A stretch of DNA of 61,516 nt, from positions 1 to 61,516 of the forward strand of contig JAAYDF010000022.1 of the NCBI GenBank assembly GCA_012729395.1, read 5' to 3'. Source of the DNA: Phycisphaerae bacterium (lineage in GTDB: Bacteria > Planctomycetota > Phycisphaerae > UBA1845 > PWPN01). Below, piece by piece: positions 46,290 to 61,157 of this stretch; position 1 is the first letter of the stretch; the number at the start of each line of letters is the position of its first letter. The notes under the pieces were generated by a model that had not been told where the DNA came from, ran no database searches, and saw only the letters and a list, made by a program, of their open reading frames with translations. The position numbers and the translations under genes were made by a program.

Positions 46290-47059
46290 AAAGGGGACGC
46301 AGCTCTTTTTCTGGACACGCGGTTGGCATGAGGTTATCCTCTGGCCATGCCTCGACAGGCTCGATTCGCTCCGGGAGGGCTGGTCTACCACGTGCTGAAC
46401 CGCGCCGTGGCCCGGCTGCCGTTGCTGACCAAGCCCGCGGACTATGAGGCGTTCGAGCGGGTGATGGCCGAGGCCCACGAGCGTCACCCGATCCGCCTGC
46501 TGGCTTACTGTCTCATGCCCAACCACTGGCATATGGTCCTGTGGCCGCGGGAGGACGGCGAGCTGACGGCATTCGTCCGGTGGCTGACCCACACGCACAC
46601 CATGCGCTGGCACGCCCACCATCATACCACCGGGACGGGTCATCTGTACCAGGGGCGGTTCAAGTCCTTCCCGGTCCAGACCGATCCGCACTTCCTGACC
46701 GTCTGCCGGTACGTGGAGCGGAACGCCCTGCGGGCCAGGCTGGTCACCAGGGCCGAGAACTGGCGGTGGGGCAGCCTCTGGCGGCGGCGGTGCGGTGATC
46801 CCGAGGCCCGGGCGATCCTCTCGGACTGGCCCATCGACCGGCCGCGGAACTGGGTGCACTTGATCAACCAAGCGCAGAGCCCGGAGGAGATGGACGCCCT
46901 CCACAAAGCAGTCCAGCGCGGCACGCCCTTCGGCTTACCCGCCTGGACAACGCGCACCTCTGTCCGGCTCGGACTGGAATACACTCTCCGCCCCCGCGGC
47001 CGGCCCCGCAAAACGCCAAAACCAACCCCCCAGCAAGAAAAATGAGTTGCGTCCCCTTT
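46290..47059 (+). mobile_element. RAYT element: REP-type transposase gene between inverted repeats
   Basis: The gene at 46347-47045 is bracketed by a 24-bp imperfect inverted repeat. Left is 46290-46313, starting AAAGGGGACGCAGCTC. Right is 47036-47059, whose complement starts AAAGGGGACGCAACTC. About 22 of 24 positions match over the common part. The right repeat overlaps the end of the coding sequence. No target duplication is obvious. Confidence 0.75.
46347..47045 (+). CDS. REP-associated tyrosine transposase (Y1, IS200-like, RAYT)
   Basis: A 232-residue single-strand DNA transposase. It has the typical start (RFAPGGLVYHVLNRAVARLPL), the metal-binding HxH in MPNHWHMVLW, THTMRWHAHHH, GHLYQGRFKSFPVQ and the catalytic Tyr region VCRYVERNALRARLV. 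RAYTs bind and cleave hairpin REP sequences and are usually domesticated single-copy genes. The gene is complete. It could be responsible for spreading one of the hairpin repeat families in this window, but the flanking repeat AAAGGGGACGCA does not match them. Confidence 0.9.
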   Translation: MPRQARFAPGGLVYHVLNRAVARLPLLTKPADYEAFERVMAEAHERHPIRLLAYCLMPNHWHMVLWPREDGELTAFVRWLTHTHTMRWHAHHHTTGTGHLYQGRFKSFPVQTDPHFLTVCRYVERNALRARLVTRAENWRWGSLWRRRCGDPEARAILSDWPIDRPRNWVHLINQAQSPEEMDALHKAVQRGTPFGLPAWTTRTSVRLGLEYTLRPRGRPRKTPKPTPQQEK

Positions 47060-48036: not shown

Positions 48037-49623
48037 CTAAACCCTATACCATTGCCACATCAGCCACAGCGCGTAGACATACGCTGCCGCAGGGAGGGCA
48101 ACGACCAGTCTCGCCACGATTCCCATGAACGAGCTCTCGTTCAGGCGTTCGAACAAGGGAATCCCCGCATACGCAATGCCCAGGCCGCATAGCACGGGCG
48201 TGAAGGGTGAATACCAGCGAACCGCCAGCACAATCGTCGCGATTCCCAAGGCCAGCATTGCGGTTCGGAGTTGCCAGGTCAGTTGGGGCTCCCGTCCCTC
48301 CTTGGGAGTGCGGTCGAAGGATGGTCGGCGCCGGAGCAGCAGGTGAATCGAGAACCTCCAAGCTGCGATCGGCAACGCGGCGCCGTAGATCGCCGTGGTC
48401 CACATGTATTGCCGCAGCGCATGAAACAGGTTCGGCGACACGGAATTGAGCACCGGCAATGGCGACATGAACATCACGACGAAGACGTAGGGCAATGCCG
48501 GGTGCAGGGCGGCGATCCGCATCTCCCAATACCGGTGACACACATAGGCGCTCAAGTAGCCGTTGAGGAAGATCAGGGGCATCAGCACGTACCAGCCGAA
48601 GAGCATCGTCATGTCGATTTTCTCGGTGAACCGTGCCGGCCCGACCAGGAATTTGAGAAAGTGTCGGCGTACCAGTTCCGCGGTCCCGCCGGCAAACTTG
48701 CGGAAGCGGATCAGAAAGGCGCCGAACGAAGGGGGAAACGATTCCCAGGCCTGGACCTCAGCCGCGTACGCTCCCAGCCAGCCCCGGTTTCGCATCTCCA
48801 TGGATATGGCGAAGTCCTCGGAGACCACCTCGGGGAACGGAACCTCCCGCCAGGCAGTCAGCCGCAGCGCTGCCCCATGACCGATCATCGGCAAGAAGCC
48901 GTAGGTCGCGCGCAGCGGAAGGTCGTACGAGTAAAACACCTCGATCTCATTCCCGAGAGCTTCCTGGAACAGGGTCGACGGGACCGGCAATTCGTGATCC
49001 GAGATCTGCCGTGCCTGGACGTAGCCGACGTTATTCTGCGTGCGCGCTACGACACTTGCGAACCGCCTCACGTAATCCTGCGGCAAGTGCTGGTCGGCAT
49101 CAACGATGATCGCCCACCCGGCGTCCCCGCCCACCTTCTCCAATGCGGCATTGAGATTACCGGCTTTGAAGCCGCGGCGGTCGGATCGGCGGAGAACCTC
49201 GACTTCTGGAAACTGGGAATGGAAGTCGTCGATGCGTGCGACGAATGCGGGGTCGCGGCTGTCATCGCAAATCACAACGCGAAACCGATCCGCGGGGTAA
49301 TCCTGCGAACAACACGAGTAGCACGCCTGCCACTGGAAGTCGTCGCACGTCGGATAAAGAACCACAAAACGAGGCGTCGCATCCTCCGTCAGCGCCGAGG
49401 CAGGCCGGGCCTGGCGAAAGAGCGACGTAAACCGGAACGTCAGATGGTGGAGCGACCACCACAGCACAGCCCACCAGATGGCCATGTTCACCAGGCTCAA
49501 CCAGGCCAACGACCTGTCCTGCAGATCGACTCGTCGCATCCACGGTACGCCCAGGAAGACGGTGAAGGCAATCATCGCGGCCAGCGGCAGGAATACCAAC
49601 ACGGGATTCTTCGTGTGGTTCAT
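48037..49623 (-). CDS. Membrane GT2 glycosyltransferase (cellulose-synthase-like)
   Basis: A 528-residue processive-type GT2. Two N-terminal helices (LVFLPLAAMIAFTVFLGVPW, LSLVNMAIWWAVLWWSLHHL), then the GT-A domain: RFVVLYPTCDDF, VVICDDSRDP, IIVDADQHLP (DxD), VSEDFAIS (catalytic ED) and RFRKFAGGT in place of QxxRW. About five C-terminal helices follow. It would polymerise a nucleotide-sugar into a beta-glucan or similar glycan and export it. Its start overlaps the stop of the TIR-GH17-like gene (ATGA), so the two are co-translated. GT2 and GH17 domains are combined in some beta-glucan modifying proteins (NdvC-like). Confidence 0.9.
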   Translation of the reverse strand: MNHTKNPVLVFLPLAAMIAFTVFLGVPWMRRVDLQDRSLAWLSLVNMAIWWAVLWWSLHHLTFRFTSLFRQARPASALTEDATPRFVVLYPTCDDFQWQACYSCCSQDYPADRFRVVICDDSRDPAFVARIDDFHSQFPEVEVLRRSDRRGFKAGNLNAALEKVGGDAGWAIIVDADQHLPQDYVRRFASVVARTQNNVGYVQARQISDHELPVPSTLFQEALGNEIEVFYSYDLPLRATYGFLPMIGHGAALRLTAWREVPFPEVVSEDFAISMEMRNRGWLGAYAAEVQAWESFPPSFGAFLIRFRKFAGGTAELVRRHFLKFLVGPARFTEKIDMTMLFGWYVLMPLIFLNGYLSAYVCHRYWEMRIAALHPALPYVFVVMFMSPLPVLNSVSPNLFHALRQYMWTTAIYGAALPIAAWRFSIHLLLRRRPSFDRTPKEGREPQLTWQLRTAMLALGIATIVLAVRWYSPFTPVLCGLGIAYAGIPLFERLNESSFMGIVARLVVALPAAAYVYALWLMWQWYRV

Positions 49624-51065
49624 CCGGCTACCCTCCGCAGCCGCATCCAACGGCCGACCACTGCCCGCGGTTTCCCGTCGGCATGGAACAACCCCGTGTA
49701 CGGATCCCAGGGCAGGAAGCTGCCCCCTTGCTTCCAGGGTGAATCGAAAGCGCCGTGCACGACGAGGGCCACGGGAATCCGGGTTCCCGACAACGGATCG
49801 CGGATGGCGTTCACAACTCCCTCAAAGTAGTCGGCCTGGCGATGGTAGTCGGGCTCCTCCTGAAGCGTGTTGCGCACCGGATACGTCAAGGATTTGATCA
49901 TTACCGGTTGGTCGAATCGTTCGGCGATCGCCGCAATCCGTTTGAGTTCGCCGACGGTCGTCCGGATATCCCCCTCGAGGTCGTGCAGGCTGTAAGCGTG
50001 ATGCACGTCTGGACAAAGGAAATCGCCCATCGCGTTCAGCCGGCTCGCTTCGGGGGTGTATTGCTTTGCCAGTTGTGTCGTCGCCACCGGTTTTCGGGTG
50101 CGATCGCGCAGCCAGCGCAAGGCATGTTGAAGCTGTCTTTCGCTGCACAAGGTGAGCCCTGTGTCGTCGCTCAGGCAATTGTGCCCCACGCAATAGGCGT
50201 CGACGTATTGCCGGTTGTCATAAGCAATCCGGAGTTCGTTGTCGTCGAGGGGATTCCAGACCCCCATGATCACCTTGAAGCCATGCTCGTGGGCCAACCG
50301 CGGGATGCAAGCGAGGTCCGGTCGGCTCCCGTAGGTGACGATGCCCGTGAATCCGACCTCGCGGAGCGTCGCCAGCTCGCGAATGATCTCCAGCTCGGTG
50401 GTGCTGTCGAGTACGGCCGGGTTGAAGCGGGCCGGTTCGTAGCCGATCCAACTCGACTGGTGCAGAAGCTGAAGTACCTCGGTGCGTTCCGGCCGCCATT
50501 CGGCAACAATGGTCGACAGGAACATGATCAGCGTGCAGAGCGCCAGGCCAGCGGTTCCCAGCGCAGCTCGCCACAGGTGTCGGAGGCCGCCCTCCGCCTC
50601 GTGCTGAGCACGTCGCCCTTGAAGCATGCCGATCAGTCCGCTGACCGCCTCCCCCAGCCGTTTCTGACGCTCATCGTCGGGCAACTGATCGAGGGGAGGG
50701 TGTGGCGGAATCAGCGACTGTACCTTCCCATAGGTGGCCATCCGGTAGTCCGCGTTGTCCACACGAACCCAGGTGAGATAGATGCGGCCCTGGTCGTACA
50801 GGCTCAACAACTCGGGGAGTTCCAGGTTGCGGATGAAATCGGAATCGTGGAAGCTGTTCGAGACAATGAGACATCCAACCCTGGCGCGAGCCAGAGCCTT
50901 TGCGATTTCCCTCTTCCAGTCCTCCCCTGCCTGGACGCGCTTATCCGTCCAGATCGTTTCCACCAGATCGGGGTCGGCCTGCTTGCGGAACTCGTCGAGA
51001 ATGCACTCGAGCCAGGCCTGATCCTCGTGTGCGTAGCTGATAAACAGGATTCGTTGCTTGCCCAT
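49620..51065 (-). CDS. TIR domain, transmembrane helix, GH17-like ectodomain
   Basis: A 481-residue protein from the ATG at 51065, where the TIR domain begins. Residues 5-150 are a TIR domain (ILFISYAHEDQAWLECILDEF, IWTDKRVQAGEDWKREIAKAL, VGCLIVSNSFHDSDFIRNLELPELL-type pattern). Residues about 165-190 form one hydrophobic helix (AALGTAGLALCTLIMFLSTIV). Residues 200-481 resemble GH17 (VGFTGIVTYGSRPDLACIPRL, HGFKVIMGVW, AFDSPWKQG, YTGLFHADGKPR). The GH17 acid/base motif (VGNE) reads VGHN (293-296), and the nucleophile motif (usually GExGWPS) reads IKSLTYPV (390-397), so the enzyme is probably inactive. Likely a membrane receptor with a cytosolic TIR. The next gene is GT2. Confidence 0.85.
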   Translation of the reverse strand: MGKQRILFISYAHEDQAWLECILDEFRKQADPDLVETIWTDKRVQAGEDWKREIAKALARARVGCLIVSNSFHDSDFIRNLELPELLSLYDQGRIYLTWVRVDNADYRMATYGKVQSLIPPHPPLDQLPDDERQKRLGEAVSGLIGMLQGRRAQHEAEGGLRHLWRAALGTAGLALCTLIMFLSTIVAEWRPERTEVLQLLHQSSWIGYEPARFNPAVLDSTTELEIIRELATLREVGFTGIVTYGSRPDLACIPRLAHEHGFKVIMGVWNPLDDNELRIAYDNRQYVDAYCVGHNCLSDDTGLTLCSERQLQHALRWLRDRTRKPVATTQLAKQYTPEASRLNAMGDFLCPDVHHAYSLHDLEGDIRTTVGELKRIAAIAERFDQPVMIKSLTYPVRNTLQEEPDYHRQADYFEGVVNAIRDPLSGTRIPVALVVHGAFDSPWKQGGSFLPWDPYTGLFHADGKPRAVVGRWMRLRRVAG

Positions 51066-51105: not shown

Positions 51106-51384
51106 TCACCTCGCGATCCGGTAGCCCAGGGCCATGATGGCCTTGATCGTCTCCATGGCCGCCTTGCGGTCGTATTCCTTCTCCGACTCGGGCAGATCGG
51201 CGTAGGGGACCAGGCACGGGTGCTTCTTGTTCGCGTCGTCGCGCATCGGCCCATGCGTCCAGCCGTCCCGGATGCGTTGCACGGCCCAGACGTCGTGGGC
51301 GTTCTCCGCCAATCGCTCGGTGAGGGCGATTAGTTCCGGCGGCAAGATCACGCGCGAGGTGTCAATCGGAGACGGCTGGTACAT
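51106..51384 (-). CDS. Stand-alone RyR-domain protein
   Basis: A 92-residue protein that is almost entirely one RyR domain: YQPSPIDTSRVILPPELIAL, ENAHDVWAVQRIRDGWTHG, KKHPCLVPYADLPESEKEYD and IKAIMALGYRIAR. In ryanodine receptors this repeat is structural; in bacteria it occurs in predicted nucleotide-signalling and conflict proteins, where ligand binding has been proposed. AGGAAAGGACAAG lies upstream of the ATG. It is 40 bp before the TIR gene and directly follows a truncated RyR copy. It may be an adaptor or sensor shared by the larger RyR proteins. Confidence 0.88.
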   Translation of the reverse strand: MYQPSPIDTSRVILPPELIALTERLAENAHDVWAVQRIRDGWTHGPMRDDANKKHPCLVPYADLPESEKEYDRKAAMETIKAIMALGYRIAR

Positions 51385-51385
51385 G

Positions 51386-51607
51386 TCAGTTATCTTGTCC
51401 TTTCCTGTGCCTGGTGACGGCTCGTTTCGGCCGTACGGAACGCGCGTTCCGGTGGTCGCGCTTGTGCACGGCCAATTTCGCCGCCTTGAGCATGGTCGGC
51501 CAGCTTTTGACCGCATCGCTGTCTTGCTGCCTGATCTCCTCGGCCAGATCGCGCCAGGCGACCAGACAGTTGTGCTTCAGCTTATCATCATCCCGTTTCT
51601 CGTCATA
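51386..51607 (-). pseudogene. Truncated RyR-domain relic
   Basis: Reading from 51607 on the minus strand gives YDEKRDDDKLKHNCLVAWRD, then LAEEIRQQDSDAVKSWPTML. This aligns with the second half of RyR domains (RDDxxKxHxxLVPW...). The frame is closed immediately upstream by TAG (51608-51610), no start codon is available and the first half of the domain is missing. It ends 1 bp before the ATG of the intact RyR gene. Probably the decayed remains of a second RyR gene. Confidence 0.7.
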
Positions 51608-51656
51608 CTACGGCCCGGCCGACTCGCCCGGAACGGGAGCGTCCTCGCTGATCCGA

Positions 51657-52070
51657 TCAGACGCCTTGCCGGCCGCCCCGCTGAAGGTAATCCACGATGA
51701 ACTCGTGCAACTGCTCGCTCATGTCCAGGTGGGCCAACTCGCCCGGCGGCACCCAGCAGTAGTCGTCGTGCTCGTCGCTCAGACGCACCTCGCCCGCTTC
51801 GAGGCGGGCTTCAATGAACAGCACCGCCAGCCGGATCTCGGGCATCTCATAGTGCGTGGCCCCGGCCACCTTGTCCAGGGCGATGGTCAGCCCGGTCTCT
51901 TCAGCCACCTCGCGCAGCAGGGCGGCGTCGAACGCCTCCCCGGCATCAACCTTCCCGCCGGGGAACTCCCACGTGCCGGCAAAACGCTTGGATTGCGCCG
52001 AGCGGCGAAGGAGCAGGATCTGTCCGTGCGAGTCGTTGATAATCGCCTTGACACCCAAGCCGTAAGGTTT
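51657..52070 (-). CDS. NUDIX hydrolase
   Basis: A 137-residue protein with an intact NUDIX box (GKVDAGEAFDAALLREVAEETG) preceded by RRSAQSKRFAGTWEFPG, similar to the MutT/8-oxo-dGTPase or general nucleoside-diphosphate-X hydrolases. It would hydrolyse a nucleotide derivative, possibly a signal nucleotide made by the locus (inference). The ATG at 52070 starts the domain; longer in-frame starts add unstructured sequence. It sits between the STAND gene and the RyR gene. A second, decayed NUDIX copy lies at 58135-58312. Confidence 0.9.
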   Translation of the reverse strand, partial: KPYGLGVKAIINDSHGQILLLRRSAQSKRFAGTWEFPGGKVDAGEAFDAALLREVAEETGLTIALDKVAGATHYEMPEIRLAVLFIEARLEAGEVRLSDEHDDYCWVPPGELAHLDMSEQLHEFIVDYLQRGGRQGV

Positions 52071-52276: not shown

Positions 52277-55200
52277 TCATGAGGCCTCTGGGCCGGACGA
52301 GCTCGGGCCATATCGACGCTTCAGTTCCTGAGTCGCTGCAAGAGCTTCCTGCGGACTGCGGCCTGTGCGCTCCAACAGGATACGATAGAACTTGGTGGCA
52401 GGCGCCCGCTCGGGTAGAGCGTGTCCCGTGGCCTTCTCGATACTCCACATGATCCGCAGTGCCCGGCGCATGCGCTGTTCTGCTTCTTTGAAGCGGTTTG
52501 TCTTAGTCAGCAAAACAGCCAGGTTGAAGAGGGCCTTGGCGAGGTCCGGGTCATCTGTTCCAAGCGACCGTTGCTGCCAGATGGCTAGTGCCTGACGCAT
52601 CTTCATTTCAGCGTCGGTCAACTGGTTCAGGCGAGCAAGCACCGTAGCCAGGTTGTTGAGGCGGATGGCCACCAATGGATGGTCTTGGCCGTAGCTCCGC
52701 TCGTCGATGGACAATGCTCGGCGAATCAACTGCGCCGCCTCGGCCGGCCGGTTCATCAGCAATAGCGTGCTCAAGTTACTGAGGCATACGGCTATTCTTG
52801 GATGATCCTTACCCAGGTTCATCTCGGCAATATCCAGAGCTTGGCGTATATGCTGCTCGGCTTCGCTTGAGCGGTTTGTGGCCCGCAGCAACTCAGCCAG
52901 GTTGGCTAGGTCTCTTGCCACTGATGGATGAGTCTGACCAAGAAACTCTTGATCGATGGCCAAGGCTTGACGCAACAAGCGCTCGGCTTCGGCCGGGCGG
53001 TTTGTGATAAGCAGCAACTGCGCCAAGTTGCTGAGGCCTGTGGCCAAACTCGCGTGATCCTTGTTGGGACTGCTCTTGAGGATTCGAATCGCTCGACGAT
53101 ACATCTTCTCAGCTTCCGGTAGCCGGTTCGCAGCCCGCAGTACTTGACCCAGACTGGAGAGATCTCTGGCCACATTGGGGTGGACCGGGCCAAGCAGTTG
53201 TTTATCGACGGCCAGCGCTCGGCGACATAGCTTCTCGGCTTCAGCCAGATGATTTGTTTCTATGCATGAGGCAACGAGGCCGCTGAGAACCGACGCGATG
53301 TCTACGGGGCTCTCTCCAGGCGACCGCTCCAGATAATCAAGCGCACGGCGCATCAGCGGTTTGGCCTCGGCGTGGAGGGAAGCGTGGCCCAGAAAGAGAC
53401 CCAGCACATGCGCGACAAAAGACGCATCTTGTTCTCGATTGCCCGGCAACCGCGACCACAACTCGAAGGCCTCACGGTAGGCCTTTCCCATGCTCCGCTC
53501 TTCACCCAGCCAGACCCAGTAGCGGAGCAACTCGTTCTGGTCTCGCTTGCGGATGAGGAGAAACTGATCAATAGCGAGCAGGCAGGCGCGGAGACGATCC
53601 CGCTCGCCGGCTTCGCGGAGTTGCCAGGGAAGCTCGGTCGCGGTGCGCGGCGTCGGCGGCTGGGGCTCGAAATAGTCGGCCAATGCGCGGTGGGCGGCGC
53701 GGATGTCCGCGTCGTCGTCCAGGAACTCGGCCCGGACGGCCTGCCGCAGGAAATCGTGCCCGAAGGCGAACAGGCCGGCGTGCCGGGCGAGGTGTGGCTC
53801 CAGGGCGTAGAAAAACGGTGTCCACACCTGCCGGGGCAGCGGTGTCGCGGTGGCCAGCAGTTCCAGCCACTCGGTCTCCGCCAGACCCTGCCGGGCTGCC
53901 CAGAGGTGGCGCAGGGCGCGGCGGACGAGGTCATAGCCGGCGTCGAAGTCCTGCTGCCAGCGTTGGAGCACGAGTCGGAAGAGGGCCTCCGGCGTGGTGG
54001 CCTTCAGGTAGCGGGCGACTTCGGCTGGCAACCGTTCGAAGCTGCCGAACTGCCGCAATTCCTCCAGTACGGTGCGCAAGAAGAGCGGATTGGCCGCCCC
54101 AGGGGCGGTTGCGATCTGCCGCCGCAGATCCGGTTGGAGCGTTTTGCGGTAGTGATCAAGGAATGCCGCAATCATGGCATCCCGCTCCTCCTCGTCGGGC
54201 AGGGGCAGCGGATGCTTCGTCCAGTCGCGCTCAGTGAGGGCATCCAGAGATGGGCCGGGCAACGCGGACGCGATCACACGGACCTGGGGTGGAAAGTGTC
54301 GTGGCAGCCAGACGAGCCGGCGGTCGGCCTCATCGCCCTCGATCTGGTTGAGGGCATCGAACACCAGGACGATCCGGTCCCGGCCTGCCGCCTGGGCCAG
54401 CCAGAGGGGCAGGATCTCGCGCAGCTTGGCCGAATCGGTGGGGATGTCCTTGGTGATGGCGTAGCGGCTCTTCAACTCGCCCAGCAGGCGGACAAGGAAG
54501 CCCGAAACCGTGGCGCTCTCCGGGGTGGCCCCGAAATAGTGCTCGAAAGCGAACTCGTCGGGGTGGCCCTGTCGCCAGTGCCGCATCCAGGCGGCCAGCA
54601 GCGCGGTCTTGCCTCCGCCGCTCGGGCCGGTGAGGACAAGGCCCTGACCGGTGGGCTCGGCCGCTACAAAGGCGTCGATTGCGGCGGTGTGTGCTGGCCG
54701 TTCCACGTAGGCCAGCAGCTTGCCGGCGGCGTAAGCGGCGTGGCCGCGGGCCTCGCGGGTGATCGCGTCGGGGATCTCGTCTTTGGGGTAAAGCTGATCG
54801 ATCAGGTTGAGGAACTGCTGGCGCACGGCGTCGGCCAGGGCCTGGGGGTTGGCGTAGGGCTCGACCAACGGCTTGCCGCTGCAGCGAATGCGCCCCTTGA
54901 GGGCGGCGAGTTTCGCCCGGCGTTCAGCCGTGCGCCGAGTAGCCTCGGCCGCGCCGTGTGTTTCGACGTCGGCAGGGATGTTGCGCTCAACCATCTCCAG
55001 GCGTTCGGTCTCGGGCAACGTGTCCACGTACCCTGGATCGCGAAAGTAGAAGAAGGCGTGGTCGTCCATGGCCGGGTTGTTGAGCACGCCGTGCAGGATC
55101 TCCAACTCGGTAACCGAGGTGCGTCCCCCGACATGCTCTTGCAGCCAAGGCTCGCGGGCCATCACCTCCGGCGGCACCGAGTCGGGAATCCAGCCGTAGC

Positions 55201-55492
55201 GCCCGCCCAGCAATCCGATGAAGTACGGCCGGCTGCGGTGGATCTCCTCCAGGCAGATGGGCAGAACCTTGCCCTCGGCGGCCTGTTCCTCGGTGATGCC
55301 CCAGCGGAGGTCGACTTCGGTAAAGGTCACGAACCGTTCGGCGCAGACGCGGCGCAGCTCGGGGAAAACCTGCTTGACCAGCAGTTCCCGCTCCGCTTGC
55401 ATGTCGCGGAAGGTGGAGGAGATGAAGACGCGGATGACGCGGTCGCCTTTCGGCGATGGGTTCCCGCTGGCTGATGGGAGCGTGGCGTTCAT
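52277..55492 (-). CDS. DUF4062-STAND NTPase-TPR protein
   Basis: A 1071-residue protein. Residues 18-140 are DUF4062 (VIRVFISSTFRDMQAERELL, EVDLRWGITEEQA). Residues about 260-600 are a NACHT/STAND-type NTPase with Walker A GPSGGGKT (289-296) and Walker B IVLVFDALNQ (374-383), then a winged-helix-like region. Residues about 740-1010 hold six kinesin-light-chain-type TPRs with a 42-residue period (AEAEKLCRRALAVDKQLLGPVHPNVARDL-type units). This is the layout of STAND sensors such as NPHP3-like and Avs-type immune proteins: a repeat sensor, an oligomerising ATPase and an N-terminal effector or adaptor. The start is 3 bp after the RelA-SLOG-RyR gene's stop, so translation is coupled. Confidence 0.92.
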   Translation of the reverse strand: MNATLPSASGNPSPKGDRVIRVFISSTFRDMQAERELLVKQVFPELRRVCAERFVTFTEVDLRWGITEEQAAEGKVLPICLEEIHRSRPYFIGLLGGRYGWIPDSVPPEVMAREPWLQEHVGGRTSVTELEILHGVLNNPAMDDHAFFYFRDPGYVDTLPETERLEMVERNIPADVETHGAAEATRRTAERRAKLAALKGRIRCSGKPLVEPYANPQALADAVRQQFLNLIDQLYPKDEIPDAITREARGHAAYAAGKLLAYVERPAHTAAIDAFVAAEPTGQGLVLTGPSGGGKTALLAAWMRHWRQGHPDEFAFEHYFGATPESATVSGFLVRLLGELKSRYAITKDIPTDSAKLREILPLWLAQAAGRDRIVLVFDALNQIEGDEADRRLVWLPRHFPPQVRVIASALPGPSLDALTERDWTKHPLPLPDEEERDAMIAAFLDHYRKTLQPDLRRQIATAPGAANPLFLRTVLEELRQFGSFERLPAEVARYLKATTPEALFRLVLQRWQQDFDAGYDLVRRALRHLWAARQGLAETEWLELLATATPLPRQVWTPFFYALEPHLARHAGLFAFGHDFLRQAVRAEFLDDDADIRAAHRALADYFEPQPPTPRTATELPWQLREAGERDRLRACLLAIDQFLLIRKRDQNELLRYWVWLGEERSMGKAYREAFELWSRLPGNREQDASFVAHVLGLFLGHASLHAEAKPLMRRALDYLERSPGESPVDIASVLSGLVASCIETNHLAEAEKLCRRALAVDKQLLGPVHPNVARDLSSLGQVLRAANRLPEAEKMYRRAIRILKSSPNKDHASLATGLSNLAQLLLITNRPAEAERLLRQALAIDQEFLGQTHPSVARDLANLAELLRATNRSSEAEQHIRQALDIAEMNLGKDHPRIAVCLSNLSTLLLMNRPAEAAQLIRRALSIDERSYGQDHPLVAIRLNNLATVLARLNQLTDAEMKMRQALAIWQQRSLGTDDPDLAKALFNLAVLLTKTNRFKEAEQRMRRALRIMWSIEKATGHALPERAPATKFYRILLERTGRSPQEALAATQELKRRYGPSSSGPEAS

Positions 55493-55495
55493 AGG

Positions 55496-58069
55496 TTACT
55501 TCCTGTAGACCTCCAGCCCGGCCTTGGCGAGGATTTCGGGGAAGGCCCGGACAGCGTCGTAGTCGAACTTGCGGGAGTCATCCAGGATCTTGTCGGTCCA
55601 CGGGACGATCAGGTTGTGAATCTTCCTGTCATTGTCACGCCGCTGGCCGTAACGCCAGCCGCTGCGCAGGCGCTCGACGTTCCAGCGGCCGTGTTCGAGG
55701 GCGGCCATGCGGTCCAGCTCTTCCTGCGTGAAGCCGGTAGAGATGACGGGCTGGGGCCCCGTCGCCTGACGCACGCCAAAGCCGACGGCTTCGAGTATGC
55801 AGATGGCATAGCGAGCCTGTTCGAGATTGGCCGTCTTGTAGGTATCACCGAGTTTGCTCCACGGTCGCAGGTTCTCGGGTAACTGCCTGGTGTTGTCACC
55901 CACGTACCGGCGGTGGAACTCCATGCCCATCTCTTCCAACACCGATGCCGGGAACGTGTGATCGGAAGGCAGTACAAACGCCCGGATCGTCGCCGTGTCG
56001 TACGGTAAGGGCAGCAGGTTAGGATCGTCCGCCCACAGCGGGTCGCCGATGAGTGCGTCGGCTTCCCCGCCCGATTCCATGGCCACGCCCACGGTAGCCC
56101 CCAGAGCCAGGGCGATGCGATACTCCAGGGCGCTCAGCGGCCCGCCGCCGAAGCCCAGCACCCGAACTTCGCACGGCTTGATGCCGATGGTCAGCAGGTC
56201 GGCCCAGCCCCTGAGAAGCTGGTCAGGTGAGAAGTCGGCTTCCTCGCCTACGACAGGTGGTAAGTCGTAGCGCTCGTCTTGGGGGGCGTCGTGTGGCAGG
56301 CGTCGAGGGATGTAACCGACAAGATGAAACTGCTTGCAGCCGCCAGCTTTAAGTTCCGCCGCCGCCCAGCCGACACAGCCCGGCACGCCAGAGTCGGTGC
56401 CTCCGGAGATCACCGTACCGGCAAACGAACGGAGCGAATCCTTCAGGATGAGTTGTACTTTGGGGATCATGTCTGCGGGCAGACTGGCGGCGCCGCCAGC
56501 AACGACGAGTGTGGGAGCGTTGAGCTTGTCCGCATGGCTCGACGCTAAGCGCTTGGCCTGCTCGGCGTACAGCGAAGACGAATCTTGGAAGGCCCTCGCC
56601 AGGAGCAGCAAGCCCTTGACCCATTCATGTTCGGGCGGTGGCTTCTGGCCAATGTGGATGCGGCGAATGAAGGCCAGCTCGTTATCCAGGACATCGCCAG
56701 GCACGCAAGCCGTCCCGGAACAACAGTGCCGCAGGCCGCAAGCGTACCATTTCAACGCCTCGACCCCCTCTGCCAGCAGGAGGTTCAAACGACCGGCCGT
56801 GAAACAGGCATACGGCATCTCGATACCCGCCAAGGCATGTTCCCGGCAGGTGTGGATCGCCTCGCTGACGGCAATGCGCGTACTGGCAGTCAGTTCTGCC
56901 GAGCGCGTGATGAATATCTCGAAGCCCAGGATGTCGGCCAGGTGGTATGGATTGGTCGGCTCACATTCGAGTGCCCGACGGTAGCAGTCCAGAGCCTGAG
57001 GTTCGCCCTCTTCCACGCATTCCCATGACCAGCCCAACCGTGCCAGCCCGCGTGCGTGCAGACTGCGGCTCTTACGAGCGTCCACTGCGATAGCCGTATC
57101 CTTCTGCTCCCCCAGATCGACCGCCTTCTGCAAGAGCGACTGGCCTCGTCGATATTCATTCGAGATCCAGTCCCTTCGGTGCATCTTGCACAGGGCAGAG
57201 CCCAGTTCGATCAGCACCTCTCGCCGCAACGCACCTGTGATCGATTCGTATGGTTTCAGCAACTCGACTACTTGCTTGTAATCGCCTGTGGCGTTGGCAA
57301 GCAGTTTCGCCAGACGCAACGTCAGCGAGGGACGTTCATCGGCCGCGGTATCCTCCGACAGGTTGGCTAAAACCGCCGACAAGACCGCTACCTCGTTGTC
57401 CACATCCTTTCGCTGGGCATGCGAGGTGTAGTTGGCCAGCATGCCGTCCACCTCGTTGGCCAGTCGGTCGAATGTACGGTCGCCGTCCTCCATGACAGCC
57501 GCCAGCAGGTTGCCAAGCCGGCGGGTCTCCGGCGAAAGGCGAAGCTTGGTCTTGTACATTCGGTCGTGCAATGTGTCGGCCCAGGCGTGCTGCACCCAGG
57601 TGCGCACCTGGATCTCCGCCTTGCGCTCCCCAATGGCTGTCCGCTCTTCCGCAGTGATCCCGAGGTCGCGGTCGTCGCGCAACTGCACGATGTAGTGCAT
57701 GTCGCGGTAGCCGAACTTGTCCTCCTGAAGTAGAAGGGTCTTGTCATCCTTCTCGATGATCTCGAAGTTTGCCTCGATGAAATGCCGCACCGCCTTGACC
57801 TGTTCCAGCGTTTGAACCGTTACCCGCCCGCCGCACAGATCGGTCATCTGGTGGACGGCATCTGGGTACTTGTCGAACTTGCGGGCGACCTTCTCGGCAA
57901 AGCTGGGGATGGTCTTGGCCCGCGCCTGAACCAGGACCTCGGGGAAGGCCGTCCTGCAAGCGCTTTCCATAACGCGACGAAGAACGCCCGCATAGATCAC
58001 GTAGTACGGCCGTTCTTGACTATACGCTTCGATCTGTTCCTTGTGCTTCTGAAGGTCAAGCGTTGCCAT
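55496..58069 (-). CDS. RelA/SpoT-like synthetase, helical repeats, SLOG and RyR domains
   Basis: An 857-residue protein. Residues 20-215 are a RelA/SpoT-type nucleotidyltransferase: AKTIPSFAEKVARK, MTDLCGGRV, YRDMHYIV and AEIQVRTWVQHAWAD, including the Glu of EIQVRT. No HD hydrolase domain. Residues about 245-460 are TPR/Sel1-like helices. Residues 518-690 are a TRPM-type SLOG (LSDAT) nucleotide-binding domain (VVAGGAASLPAD, VISGGTDSGVPG, LGFGGGPLSALEYRIALALG). Residues about 715-855 are RyR with its N-terminal companion (PWSKLGDTYKTANLEQA, LEHGRWNVERLRSGWRYG, RDNDRKIHNLIVPW). It could synthesise a nucleotide messenger and sense one. AGGAGA precedes the ATG. Confidence 0.9.
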   Translation of the reverse strand: MATLDLQKHKEQIEAYSQERPYYVIYAGVLRRVMESACRTAFPEVLVQARAKTIPSFAEKVARKFDKYPDAVHQMTDLCGGRVTVQTLEQVKAVRHFIEANFEIIEKDDKTLLLQEDKFGYRDMHYIVQLRDDRDLGITAEERTAIGERKAEIQVRTWVQHAWADTLHDRMYKTKLRLSPETRRLGNLLAAVMEDGDRTFDRLANEVDGMLANYTSHAQRKDVDNEVAVLSAVLANLSEDTAADERPSLTLRLAKLLANATGDYKQVVELLKPYESITGALRREVLIELGSALCKMHRRDWISNEYRRGQSLLQKAVDLGEQKDTAIAVDARKSRSLHARGLARLGWSWECVEEGEPQALDCYRRALECEPTNPYHLADILGFEIFITRSAELTASTRIAVSEAIHTCREHALAGIEMPYACFTAGRLNLLLAEGVEALKWYACGLRHCCSGTACVPGDVLDNELAFIRRIHIGQKPPPEHEWVKGLLLLARAFQDSSSLYAEQAKRLASSHADKLNAPTLVVAGGAASLPADMIPKVQLILKDSLRSFAGTVISGGTDSGVPGCVGWAAAELKAGGCKQFHLVGYIPRRLPHDAPQDERYDLPPVVGEEADFSPDQLLRGWADLLTIGIKPCEVRVLGFGGGPLSALEYRIALALGATVGVAMESGGEADALIGDPLWADDPNLLPLPYDTATIRAFVLPSDHTFPASVLEEMGMEFHRRYVGDNTRQLPENLRPWSKLGDTYKTANLEQARYAICILEAVGFGVRQATGPQPVISTGFTQEELDRMAALEHGRWNVERLRSGWRYGQRRDNDRKIHNLIVPWTDKILDDSRKFDYDAVRAFPEILAKAGLEVYRK

Positions 58070-58454: not shown

Positions 58455-61157
58455 TCATGAGTTCTTGCGCCCCCTGCGAGCCCGCGGGCGTGTTGGGGTC
58501 GCGGTGCCGCCGGGCTGCGTGCCGGTCTTCGGCTTCCGCGTGACAATCTTGAATCCGGCGAGCTCAACCATCCGAGGGAAGTGCCGGACGGAGTTCTGAT
58601 CCTTCTTGCGATCCTTTTCTTCCAGGCTGCGATAAGGCACGAGGCAGTCATGAATGTGGGCGTCATCGTCTCGCGGCTTACCTAATCGCCAGCCATTGAC
58701 CAGCTTGAACTCCATCCACAGGTCGTGCTCCTCTTCACCCAACACAGCGAGGAGTGTTTCCAGCGTATCCTGCACTTGTGGGTCGCTACGATCTGAACCA
58801 CCTTGCCTGGGCGCGAGGAACAGCCCGGCGAGTTCCAGGATCCAGGGGATGCGCTGTGCAGCCGCCACGTTGTCGGCCTTGACTTCGGCGGGAAGCTGGT
58901 CATACGGCATGCCGTATTTCAGCTTCCAGCCCTCCTCTTTCGCCAGTTGGCGCCAGGTCTCGTGAACGGCCGGGGCAAGCTTCTCGCCCAGTTTCTGGAA
59001 GTCCTCGGCCCGCGTCATGATCTGCGTGAACTCAGCCACGTCATGAACATTCATTTTCAAAATCTCATCCGGCGGAAGATTGGAACGGCGCGTCGGGGCA
59101 GACTTGTCGCGACAAAGGTGCAGACAGATCTTCTCGAAGGAACGAGCGCCGTACGTGTAGCGGTCTACCTCCAGCAGAGCCGCGAGTAATCCGCGGTCGA
59201 TGTGCAGACGCTTGTCACCCGCGCCCAGAAGTGCTCTCAGGAGCAAGGCACGCCGCACCGGAAAGCAAATATCCGTAGGATCGTCGACCCACTCCAGCGT
59301 GCTCTGTCCACCCTGCCGCACGTTCTGCCTGACCTGTCGCCGGTTCGGCCCAAGCACATTCAGGTAGCCGCTGATCCGACTGATGAAGTCAGGGCCTTTG
59401 CGCAGCCCGAATTCCTTCTGGGCTGACGCGTCCATCTTGGGCGGGCCGAAGTTCTGCATGTCGCAGCTGGTCGCGCCGGCAAAAACAAAAACACACTTGC
59501 CGACGGAATGCGTAAGCTGCCCTTCCTGAAACTTGCCGTCCTGGATCGGAGCGAGGAAGAACTGAAGCCACTTGTACTCTCCCGAGTCGAACTCGTCCCA
59601 GAACACAATAGGAGTCCTGCCTTCCAGCACCTTGTCGCGGACCTGGTGAAATGCCCCGATCAGATCGTTCGAGTTGCTGAACTGGGAGAGATTGAACTCC
59701 AGGCAAGGCGTTTCCTTCCCCATGACTTCAGCGGCAATCTGTTTGATGCCGAACGACTTGCCGGCTCCCGGCGGCCCAAATACCGCAAGGGCAAGCGGCT
59801 TGGACCCGCCCTGGTCCAACTCGTAATCCGTGATGAGTTGCCTGATGTTGCGGAGGGCCTCGATCTCGTCGCGATCCACCGTCTGCAGTTTGCCGAACTT
59901 CGCCAGCGGGGCCTGGATAAGTGCTCGCGGACCAAAGATGGCCACGCGTTTGGCAATGCCGTACAGCGGTTCCGCGCCGGTGGCCCCACGGGGAGAGGCT
60001 TGATTCTCAAGCATCCGCCACTTTCGTCCGCCAGCCGCCCAGGCATCCACATCCTGCGGTACAGAAACCGTGACGAACGCTGGGGCCGATTCCTTCGGCT
60101 GGCAAAGGGACTTGGCCAGGGCTGCGTAAGGTATGCCCGGTTGCGCTTCGCCGACCAGCCCATGCCCGAGACGCCGCAGTTCCCGTTTGGCCGCAAGGCC
60201 GGCCCGCATCGCCTGCTCGAGATCCGGCTCGGGAAGTGCCAGTTGCGCAGCGATGGCGGCCGTCAGGCAGGACATGTACCCAAAGACCTCACCCTTGATC
60301 TTCTTCGACTCGGCCCATTCCCCTTCCATGTGCTGCGGGTCGAACACGAGGCTGAAACGCCAGCCGCTCGAATCCAGACGCTCCATCCACAGGCATCCTT
60401 CCGAATACAGGCTGACGAGCACGTGCCTGGCCTGCCGCAAGCCGGCGAGCGCCGGATTGGACTTCAACTCGCGGGCAAGGTCGATGGCCGTACGTTCCCA
60501 GGAGATGCCGCGACTGATCCGCGCTTCCTGCCGGCGAAGGTCATTGACCGCGAGCAGCACAACAAGCCGATCGGCCATACCATCGGGGCGCACCAACTCG
60601 TGCCAGAGCCCGCCTTGAAACAGAGGCCAGACGGTCTTCAGCAGCACCCACTTTGGCGTTCCGCTTTTCCGTGTCAACAGCCATGGGTACGCGGGAGAGC
60701 CGAACCGAATGCCCGCGGCTCCGTCGTCGATGACAACAATGTCGGCGTTTGGCTGACCCGCTGATACCGGGGCGGACGCCGCAGCAGCAGCCTCCGCAAA
60801 CCCGAGCAAGCGTGACAGCCGCCAGACCTTATTCTGCTTACCATCCGCGCCGACGCCTTCCTGCGGCTCCCACAAGGCGTGCGTGGCCGTGCAAGCGGCT
60901 GTCTGCACCTTTGCATTACCATCGGGGCCCACGATGTCGAATGCAGGCCCGCCCGCTTCCTTGCCCATCGCGGCCAGCAGTTCGCGGACGATCCACGCCC
61001 CGCCCTTGCTTGTCACGAACGTCGTGGGCGGCACATCGCTCATCCTCGGCGACAGCCGCGTGCCGGCATAGACGTTGTGATCGAGGAGAAAATCGCCTGT
61101 CACCAGGATGGACGATGACGCGGGACGATCACGCTTCTCGATGTTGACGTCTGGCAT
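58455..61157 (-). CDS. PfkB-like, AAA+ ATPase and double RyR protein
   Basis: A 900-residue protein. Residues 15-345 resemble a ribokinase/PfkB fold (ILVTGDFLLDHNVYAG, ARHVLVSLYSEGCLWM, KGEVFGYMSCLTAAIAAQLA in place of GxGDxF), so kinase activity is doubtful. Residues 430-690 are an AAA+ ATPase with Walker A GPPGAGKS (461-468) and Walker B IVFWDEFDSG (517-526). The C-terminus has a RyR-like first unit at 725-783 (AVHETWRQLAKEEGWKLKYG, PYDQLPAEVKADN) and a second at 808-872 (EEHDLWMEFKLVNGWRLG, RDDDAHIHDCLVPYRSLEE). It ends in a basic tail. AAGGAG lies 7 nt before the ATG. It is the most upstream complete gene of the locus. Confidence 0.87.
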   Translation of the reverse strand: MPDVNIEKRDRPASSSILVTGDFLLDHNVYAGTRLSPRMSDVPPTTFVTSKGGAWIVRELLAAMGKEAGGPAFDIVGPDGNAKVQTAACTATHALWEPQEGVGADGKQNKVWRLSRLLGFAEAAAAASAPVSAGQPNADIVVIDDGAAGIRFGSPAYPWLLTRKSGTPKWVLLKTVWPLFQGGLWHELVRPDGMADRLVVLLAVNDLRRQEARISRGISWERTAIDLARELKSNPALAGLRQARHVLVSLYSEGCLWMERLDSSGWRFSLVFDPQHMEGEWAESKKIKGEVFGYMSCLTAAIAAQLALPEPDLEQAMRAGLAAKRELRRLGHGLVGEAQPGIPYAALAKSLCQPKESAPAFVTVSVPQDVDAWAAGGRKWRMLENQASPRGATGAEPLYGIAKRVAIFGPRALIQAPLAKFGKLQTVDRDEIEALRNIRQLITDYELDQGGSKPLALAVFGPPGAGKSFGIKQIAAEVMGKETPCLEFNLSQFSNSNDLIGAFHQVRDKVLEGRTPIVFWDEFDSGEYKWLQFFLAPIQDGKFQEGQLTHSVGKCVFVFAGATSCDMQNFGPPKMDASAQKEFGLRKGPDFISRISGYLNVLGPNRRQVRQNVRQGGQSTLEWVDDPTDICFPVRRALLLRALLGAGDKRLHIDRGLLAALLEVDRYTYGARSFEKICLHLCRDKSAPTRRSNLPPDEILKMNVHDVAEFTQIMTRAEDFQKLGEKLAPAVHETWRQLAKEEGWKLKYGMPYDQLPAEVKADNVAAAQRIPWILELAGLFLAPRQGGSDRSDPQVQDTLETLLAVLGEEEHDLWMEFKLVNGWRLGKPRDDDAHIHDCLVPYRSLEEKDRKKDQNSVRHFPRMVELAGFKIVTRKPKTGTQPGGTATPTRPRARRGRKNS

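What the first reader, a model, noticed from the sequence alone, without database searches (positions are those of the whole stretch)
49620..51065. TIR protein with a membrane helix and a catalytically dead GH17-like ectodomain: a possible bacterial glycan receptor
TIR, one transmembrane helix and a GH17-like barrel follow in this order. Both GH17 catalytic motifs are lost (VGNE to VGHN; the GExGWPS region reads IKSLTYPV), while structural motifs such as AFDSPWK and GLFHADG remain. A dead hydrolase fold outside the membrane joined to a cytosolic TIR resembles a pattern receptor. It is translationally coupled to a glycan synthase-like GT2, so it might sense the state of the polymer that GT2 makes or an attack on it.
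Basis: partly seen in the sequence, partly recalled or inferred. Interest (0 to 1): 0.85.

Follow-up and report, generated by a model that had tools for sequence, protein, structure and literature searches.

The report
Membrane TIR protein with dead glucanase ectodomain
A planctomycete bacterium carries a Toll-receptor-like protein whose outer part is a sugar-polymer-cutting enzyme fold stripped of its catalytic residues, placed among genes that probably make, read and clear an NAD-derived alarm signal; it may be a bacterial cell-surface glycan receptor, but only one copy is known and its function is untested.

Summary
Window 51065..49620(-) encodes 481 aa: TIR (PF13676, 3.6e-11), a long helix including one TM segment (169-187), and a C-terminal domain that AlphaFold2 predicts as a TIM barrel (most blocks above pLDDT 90). 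GH17 ancestry is shown through homologues: their profile finds the GH17 transglycosylase RmBgt17A (4.8e-14), whose nucleophile-mutant entry confirms which column is catalytic. Of 65 readable homologues, 64 keep both catalytic Glu; the window protein has lost both, plus other active-site motifs. The one other loser, a Desulfobulbaceae protein (L025), has two predicted TM segments and a cytosolic tail: an independent pseudo-GH17 membrane protein.

GT2 overlaps the TIR gene by 4 nt (ATGA). GH17+GT2 is an old pair: adjacent in six genomes, fused in five Desulfobulbia genomes, and in NdvB/'Orphan' glucan synthases. So the dead domain descends from the periplasmic partner of a glucan synthase.

New here: the same-strand upstream genes are NUDIX, NACHT-TPR, RelA-SLOG-RyR, AAA-RyR and a solo RyR keeping all four ligand residues of the cADPR-binding/cleaving phage protein RyDEP. 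I favour a membrane sensor whose TIR makes an ADPR-type signal. No second TIR-GH17 fusion was found; ligand and activity are untested.

The parts
49620..51065 (-). TIR-TM-pseudoGH17 protein, 481 aa: TIR 6-104 (E82 = predicted NADase Glu), continuous helix 130-187 containing TM 169-187, GH17-derived TIM barrel about 200-481 (catalytic positions N296 and S392)
48037..49623 (-). GT2 membrane glycosyltransferase, about 528 aa; start overlaps the TIR stop by 4 nt (ATGA); DDS, DAD and SED motifs kept, QxxRW changed to RxxKF
   Evidence: PF13632 1.3e-23; homologous to GT2s that stand next to GH17 genes in six genomes; ribosome site GGAGGG
51106..51387 (-). Stand-alone RyR-domain protein (probable start about 51384), stop about 40 nt before the TIR start; keeps H, W, H, D at the spacing of RyDEP H75/W78/H100/D117
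   Evidence: PF02026 8.1e-37; alignment; residues from PMC13232231
51657..52079 (-). NUDIX hydrolase (probable start about 52076)
   Evidence: PF00293 2.1e-23
52277..55492 (-). DUF4062-NACHT-TPR (STAND NTPase) protein, 1071 aa
   Evidence: PF13271, PF05729, TPR models
55496..58069 (-). RelA/SpoT-TPR-SLOG(LSDAT_prok, just under cut-off)-RyR protein, 857 aa
   Evidence: PF04607 4.7e-17, PF18171 1.7e-5 (24.6 vs 25.4 bits), PF02026 2.6e-10; NUDIX gene next to it in four other genomes
58455..61157 (-). AAA-RyR protein, 900 aa (two RyR stretches)
   Evidence: PF02026 2.1e-17, PF00004 1.3e-5; homologue beside a RelA-SLOG-RyR gene in L100/L101
47115..47900 (-). M78 (IrrE/CapP-like) peptidase downstream of GT2; belonging uncertain
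   Evidence: PF06114 5.1e-14; PADLOC capP 5.6e-21

Best explanation
A single-pass membrane sensor. The outer domain is a GH17 beta-1,3-glucan (trans)glycosidase fold, taken from a GT2/GH17 glucan-synthase pair, that has lost catalysis and is used to bind a ligand, most likely a glucan chain made by or related to the product of the coupled GT2. Ligand binding (or its loss when the glycan is attacked) changes the association of the cytosolic TIR domains through the continuous TIR-to-membrane helix and switches on NAD+ cleavage to an ADPR/cADPR-type signal. The neighbouring genes read and clear that signal: RyR and SLOG domains bind it, RelA/SpoT (and perhaps NACHT-TPR or AAA-RyR) act as effectors, and solo RyR and NUDIX remove cADPR and ADPR. 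Shown: domain order, homologies, loss of catalytic Glu, gene overlap and order, kept RyR ligand residues. Inferred: topology, ligand, TIR activity, signal flow, and that all genes form one system.
For: TIR with catalytic Glu aligned to PDB 3h16; TM; helix 130-187 and high-confidence barrel; 64 of 65 readable homologues keep both Glu while the window protein has lost both plus further motifs; second dead-GH17 membrane protein, L025; GH17+GT2 adjacency in six genomes, fusion in five Desulfobulbia genomes, and GH17-TM-GT2 'Orphan'/NdvB proteins (PMC10237404); ATGA overlap. Same-strand RyR/NUDIX/SLOG-RelA-RyR genes; phage RyR-domain proteins bind or cleave 2'/3'cADPR made by TIRs (PMC13232231) and the solo RyR keeps H/W/H/D. 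Other RelA-SLOG-RyR loci carry NUDIX (4 of 5) and TIR genes (2 of 5), one being TIR-TM-TPR.
Against: No second TIR-GH17 fusion was found, so selection for the architecture is not shown by conservation. The ectodomain branch is very long (4.76), which also fits relaxed constraint. The TIR-GH17 and GT2 genes are not part of the conserved NUDIX/RelA-SLOG-RyR core. GT2 QxxRW is changed, so its product is unknown. The TIR region of the model is low confidence. The SLOG match is just under its cut-off.
Confidence: 0.5

Rival explanations
1. The dead barrel is a structural or regulatory subunit of the GT2 synthase (it replaces the GH17 partner) and the TIR domain reports on or controls the synthase complex; no free ligand is sensed.
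For: GH17 and GT2 are adjacent or fused in many genomes and GH17 sits against the GT2 membrane region in models of Orphan proteins (PMC10237404); ATGA overlap suggests coupled production.
Against: Nothing shows contact between these two proteins; the GT2 QxxRW motif is altered; the TIR gene lies beside nucleotide-signal genes.
Confidence: 0.2
2. The barrel has gained a different catalytic site (for example E210 at strand 1 or D353 at strand 6), so it is an enzyme with changed chemistry rather than a dead one.
For: E210 and D353 lie at strand ends of the model where most homologues have T/S and N; L025 also has D at the second place.
Against: Both standard Glu and three more active-site motifs are gone; no family with such a site was recognised by Pfam.
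Confidence: 0.12
3. Chance fusion in decay: a TIR gene fused to a GH17 remnant with no present function.
For: Only one copy known, very long branch, broken RyR remnant nearby.
Against: Open frame of 481 codons, third-position GC like its neighbours in both halves, ribosome sites, barrel core and structural motifs kept and confidently folded.
Confidence: 0.12

Closest known systems
NdvB / 'Orphan' GH17-TM-GT2 cyclic beta-glucan synthases of Pseudomonas and relatives (PMC10237404)
   Same: GH17 fold outside the membrane working with a GT2 in the same gene or operon
   Different: Here GH17 is separate, has lost both Glu, and is joined to a TIR; GT2 QxxRW is altered
Thoeris (ThsB TIR makes cADPR isomers, ThsA SLOG reads them)
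   Same: TIR predicted to make an ADPR-type signal, with a SLOG-bearing protein encoded nearby
   Different: No ThsA; TIR is membrane-bound with an ectodomain; candidate readers are RyR and RelA-SLOG-RyR proteins
RyDEP-type RyR (R12) proteins (PMC13232231)
   Same: Solo RyR keeps all four ligand residues at the same spacing
   Different: Encoded by a bacterium beside a TIR, not by a phage as counter-defence
Toll-like receptors
   Same: Outer recognition domain, one TM, cytosolic TIR
   Different: No LRR; TIR at the N-terminus; outer domain from a glycoside hydrolase; analogy only
Tobacco CHRK1 and other plant GH18-ectodomain receptor kinases (PMC5485988)
   Same: Glycoside-hydrolase fold outside, one TM, signalling domain inside
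   Different: GH18 and kinase instead of GH17 and TIR; PMC5485988 says their ectodomain is predicted to be active

Membership tests
Glycoside hydrolase family 17 | Sequence and fold descent from GH17 | tested here: met
   Homologues above PF00332 cut-off; profile to 4wtp 4.8e-14; TIM barrel model. Foldseek top hits were other clan GH-A families, not GH17
Glycoside hydrolase family 17 | Acid/base Glu at end of beta-4 (VGNE) | tested here: not met
   VGHN, N296
Glycoside hydrolase family 17 | Nucleophile Glu at end of beta-7 (ExGWP / KExGxP) | tested here: not met
   KSLTYP, S392; column confirmed by the Glu-to-Ala sequence 4wtr
Glycoside hydrolase family 17 | Beta-1,3-glucan hydrolysis or transfer | not testable with these tools
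   Needs enzyme assay
TIR domain, NADase type | TIR fold/sequence | tested here: met
   PF13676 44 bits vs cut-off 28
TIR domain, NADase type | Catalytic Glu in helix C region | tested here: met
   E82 aligned with Glu of 3h16 and kept in closest TIRs
TIR domain, NADase type | NAD+ cleavage | not testable with these tools
   Needs assay
Thoeris | ThsA partner (SIR2- or TM-SLOG effector) next to ThsB | tested here: not met
   No ThsA among neighbours in Pfam or PADLOC scans; only partial ThsB-like TIR match 5.8e-9
NdvB/Orphan cyclic glucan synthase | Active GH17 with GT2 | tested here: not met
   GH17 residues lost; GT2 present but RxxKF
RyR (R12) ligand-binding family, for the neighbour 51387..51106 | H, W, H, D ligand residues | tested here: met
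   Same spacing 3/25/17 as RyDEP H75/W78/H100/D117
Transmembrane receptor | TIR and barrel on opposite sides of the membrane | tested here: inconclusive
   One TM predicted, four basic residues shortly before it; secreted homologues have signal-like N-termini; no topology experiment

The most novel reading that the evidence does not exclude
A bacterial Toll-like cell-surface receptor: a dead beta-glucanase ectodomain monitors the cell's own glucan (or an attack on it) and its TIR feeds a cADPR-type signal to RyR/SLOG-bearing effectors encoded next door, including a RelA/SpoT enzyme, with RyR and NUDIX proteins as built-in off-switches.
Probability: 0.28. Interest if true: 0.85.

Novelty: new variant of a known kind. 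Interest (0 to 1): 0.62.

Why it matters
Known bacterial TIR defence proteins mostly sense events inside the cell. A TIR with an outer pseudo-enzyme domain would be a bacterial counterpart of surface pattern receptors. The gene neighbourhood also offers a direct test of whether cellular RyR domains serve as readers or erasers of TIR-made cADPR in bacteria, a role reported in 2026 for phage RyR proteins (PMC13232231).

Tried and rejected
Direct Pfam GH17 search of the window protein and of its own genome: nothing, so homology was shown through relatives. Genome-contig scan with the single protein found no relative; an alignment was needed. No TIR-GH17 fusion in 61 relatives, 392 phylum genomes or 397 class genomes (overlapping sets), 62 genome loci, plasmids or phages. 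Foldseek ranked other clan GH-A barrels first, so the family call rests on sequence profiles. The cytosolic domain of L025 could not be identified: no Pfam hit, no significant PDB hit, single-sequence model pLDDT 41; a winged-helix guess is not claimed. Grouping of the window ectodomain with L025 in the tree is unresolved, with long-branch warnings. The viral-contig GH17 relative (L123) is an ordinary active-type secreted enzyme. Sigma-70 promoter and terminator scans were no better than shuffles. Papers joining 'TIR domain' and GH17 in this sense: none in the library. The 2015 paper on nucleotide-centric systems could not be read.

Full report
What is there. The minus-strand ORF 51065..49620 encodes 481 aa. 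Residues 8-104 are a TIR domain (PF13676, 44 bits, cut-off 28), with E82 aligned to the Glu of the bacterial TIR 3h16. There is one hydrophobic segment, 169-187. AlphaFold2 with 41 homologues predicts a continuous helix 130-187 running from behind the TIR into the membrane segment, then a barrel mostly above pLDDT 90; the TIR part is of low confidence because the alignment has no TIR rows.

GH17 descent. Pfam GH17 does not hit the protein itself. Whole-genome searches found secreted homologues in the same order at 31-34% identity. Two of these sit beside proteins above the PF00332 cut-off, and a profile of six homologues finds the GH17 transglycosylase 4wtp at 4.8e-14 and its Glu-to-Ala variant 4wtr, which fixes the nucleophile column. 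Foldseek's best structural matches are other clan GH-A barrels, so the family assignment rests on sequence.

Catalytic loss. A scan of GTDB contigs gave 62 loci. In the alignment of all homologues, 64 of 65 readable ones keep both Glu. The window has VGHN for VGNE and KSLTYP for KExGxP, and has also lost the Glu of FEAFD and TTE and the PNxHP motif. The rows are partly close relatives, so the count is not a count of independent events, but they span many phyla. The one other loser is L025 from a Desulfobulbaceae genome (VGNG, KTVG): an N-terminal hydrophobic segment, the dead barrel, a second predicted TM segment and a tail of about 130 residues. Its tail could not be identified. This is an independent dead-GH17 membrane protein and the best comparative support for a sensing use. 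Possible replacement acids, E210 and D353, remain in the window protein.

The GT2. Its ATG overlaps the TIR stop (ATGA) behind a GGAGGG site. Homologous GT2 genes of 507-528 aa stand downstream of GH17 genes in six genomes (L038, L047, L048, L050, L052, L064), about 0.6 kb away rather than overlapping, and GH17-GT2 fusions occur in five Desulfobulbia genomes (L118-L122), as in the Pseudomonas 'Orphan'/NdvB proteins thought to make cyclic beta-glucan (PMC10237404). The window GT2 keeps DDS, DAD and SED but has RxxKF for QxxRW, so product and activity are uncertain. The simplest history is capture of a GH17/GT2 pair, with TIR-TM joined to a decayed GH17.

The neighbourhood. Upstream on the same strand are AAA-RyR, RelA-TPR-SLOG-RyR, DUF4062-NACHT-TPR, NUDIX and a solo RyR whose stop lies about 40 nt before the TIR start; an M78 peptidase follows GT2. 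Phage RyR proteins bind or cleave 2'/3'cADPR made by TIRs (PMC13232231, a preprint). The solo RyR keeps the four ligand residues at identical spacing. RelA-SLOG-RyR homologues in five other planctomycete genomes have a NUDIX gene beside them in four; TIR genes lie beside two of them, L087 (TIR-TM-TPR) and L103. TIR, SLOG, NUDIX and RyR are all domains tied to NAD-derived nucleotides, which makes an ADPR-type signalling system the natural reading. That TIR-GH17 and GT2 belong to it is inferred from strand and spacing only.

Host. Contigs of same-order genomes G020 and G021 have the same lengths and match scores as records titled Phycisphaerales and Phycisphaerae, so the host is a Planctomycetota of that class. 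GC and third-position GC of both halves of the gene match its neighbours.

How rare. No second TIR-GH17 fusion appeared in 61 relatives, 392 phylum and 397 class genomes (overlapping), the 62 loci, plasmids or phages. The long branch (4.76) fits either fast adaptation or relaxed constraint.

Verdict. Observation confirmed. Pseudo-hydrolase status is well supported (about 0.85). A membrane sensor feeding an ADPR-type signal is the best explanation (0.5). Glycan as ligand and the link to the coupled GT2 are plausible but untested.

Noticed in passing
window 51384-51657 (-): Between NUDIX and the solo RyR lies a start-less C-terminal half of a second RyR domain (YDEKRDDDKLKHNCLVAWRDLAEEIRQQDSDAVKSWP...), a decayed duplicate.
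   Followed up: partly
window 55496-58069 (-); L087, L098/L099, L100, L102, L103: RelA/SpoT-TPR-SLOG-RyR architecture recurs in five other planctomycete genomes, with NUDIX adjacent in four: possibly an undescribed nucleotide-signalling module.
   Followed up: partly
L103 (G118:C349): Several TIR-bearing genes, one with predicted membrane segments and one TIR-DUF4062-NACHT, surround a RelA-SLOG-RyR gene.
   Followed up: no
L025 4295-5746 (+): Desulfobulbaceae protein with a catalytically dead GH17 barrel between two predicted TM segments and an unidentified tail of about 130 residues.
   Followed up: partly
window 46347-47045 (+): IS200-like Y1 transposase (PF01797) close to the downstream end of the gene array.
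   Followed up: no
L087 5440-8093 (+): MotA/TolQ/ExbB-like gene followed by two membrane coiled-coil-like proteins just before the TIR-TM-TPR gene; Zorya-like in outline but not tested.
   Followed up: no
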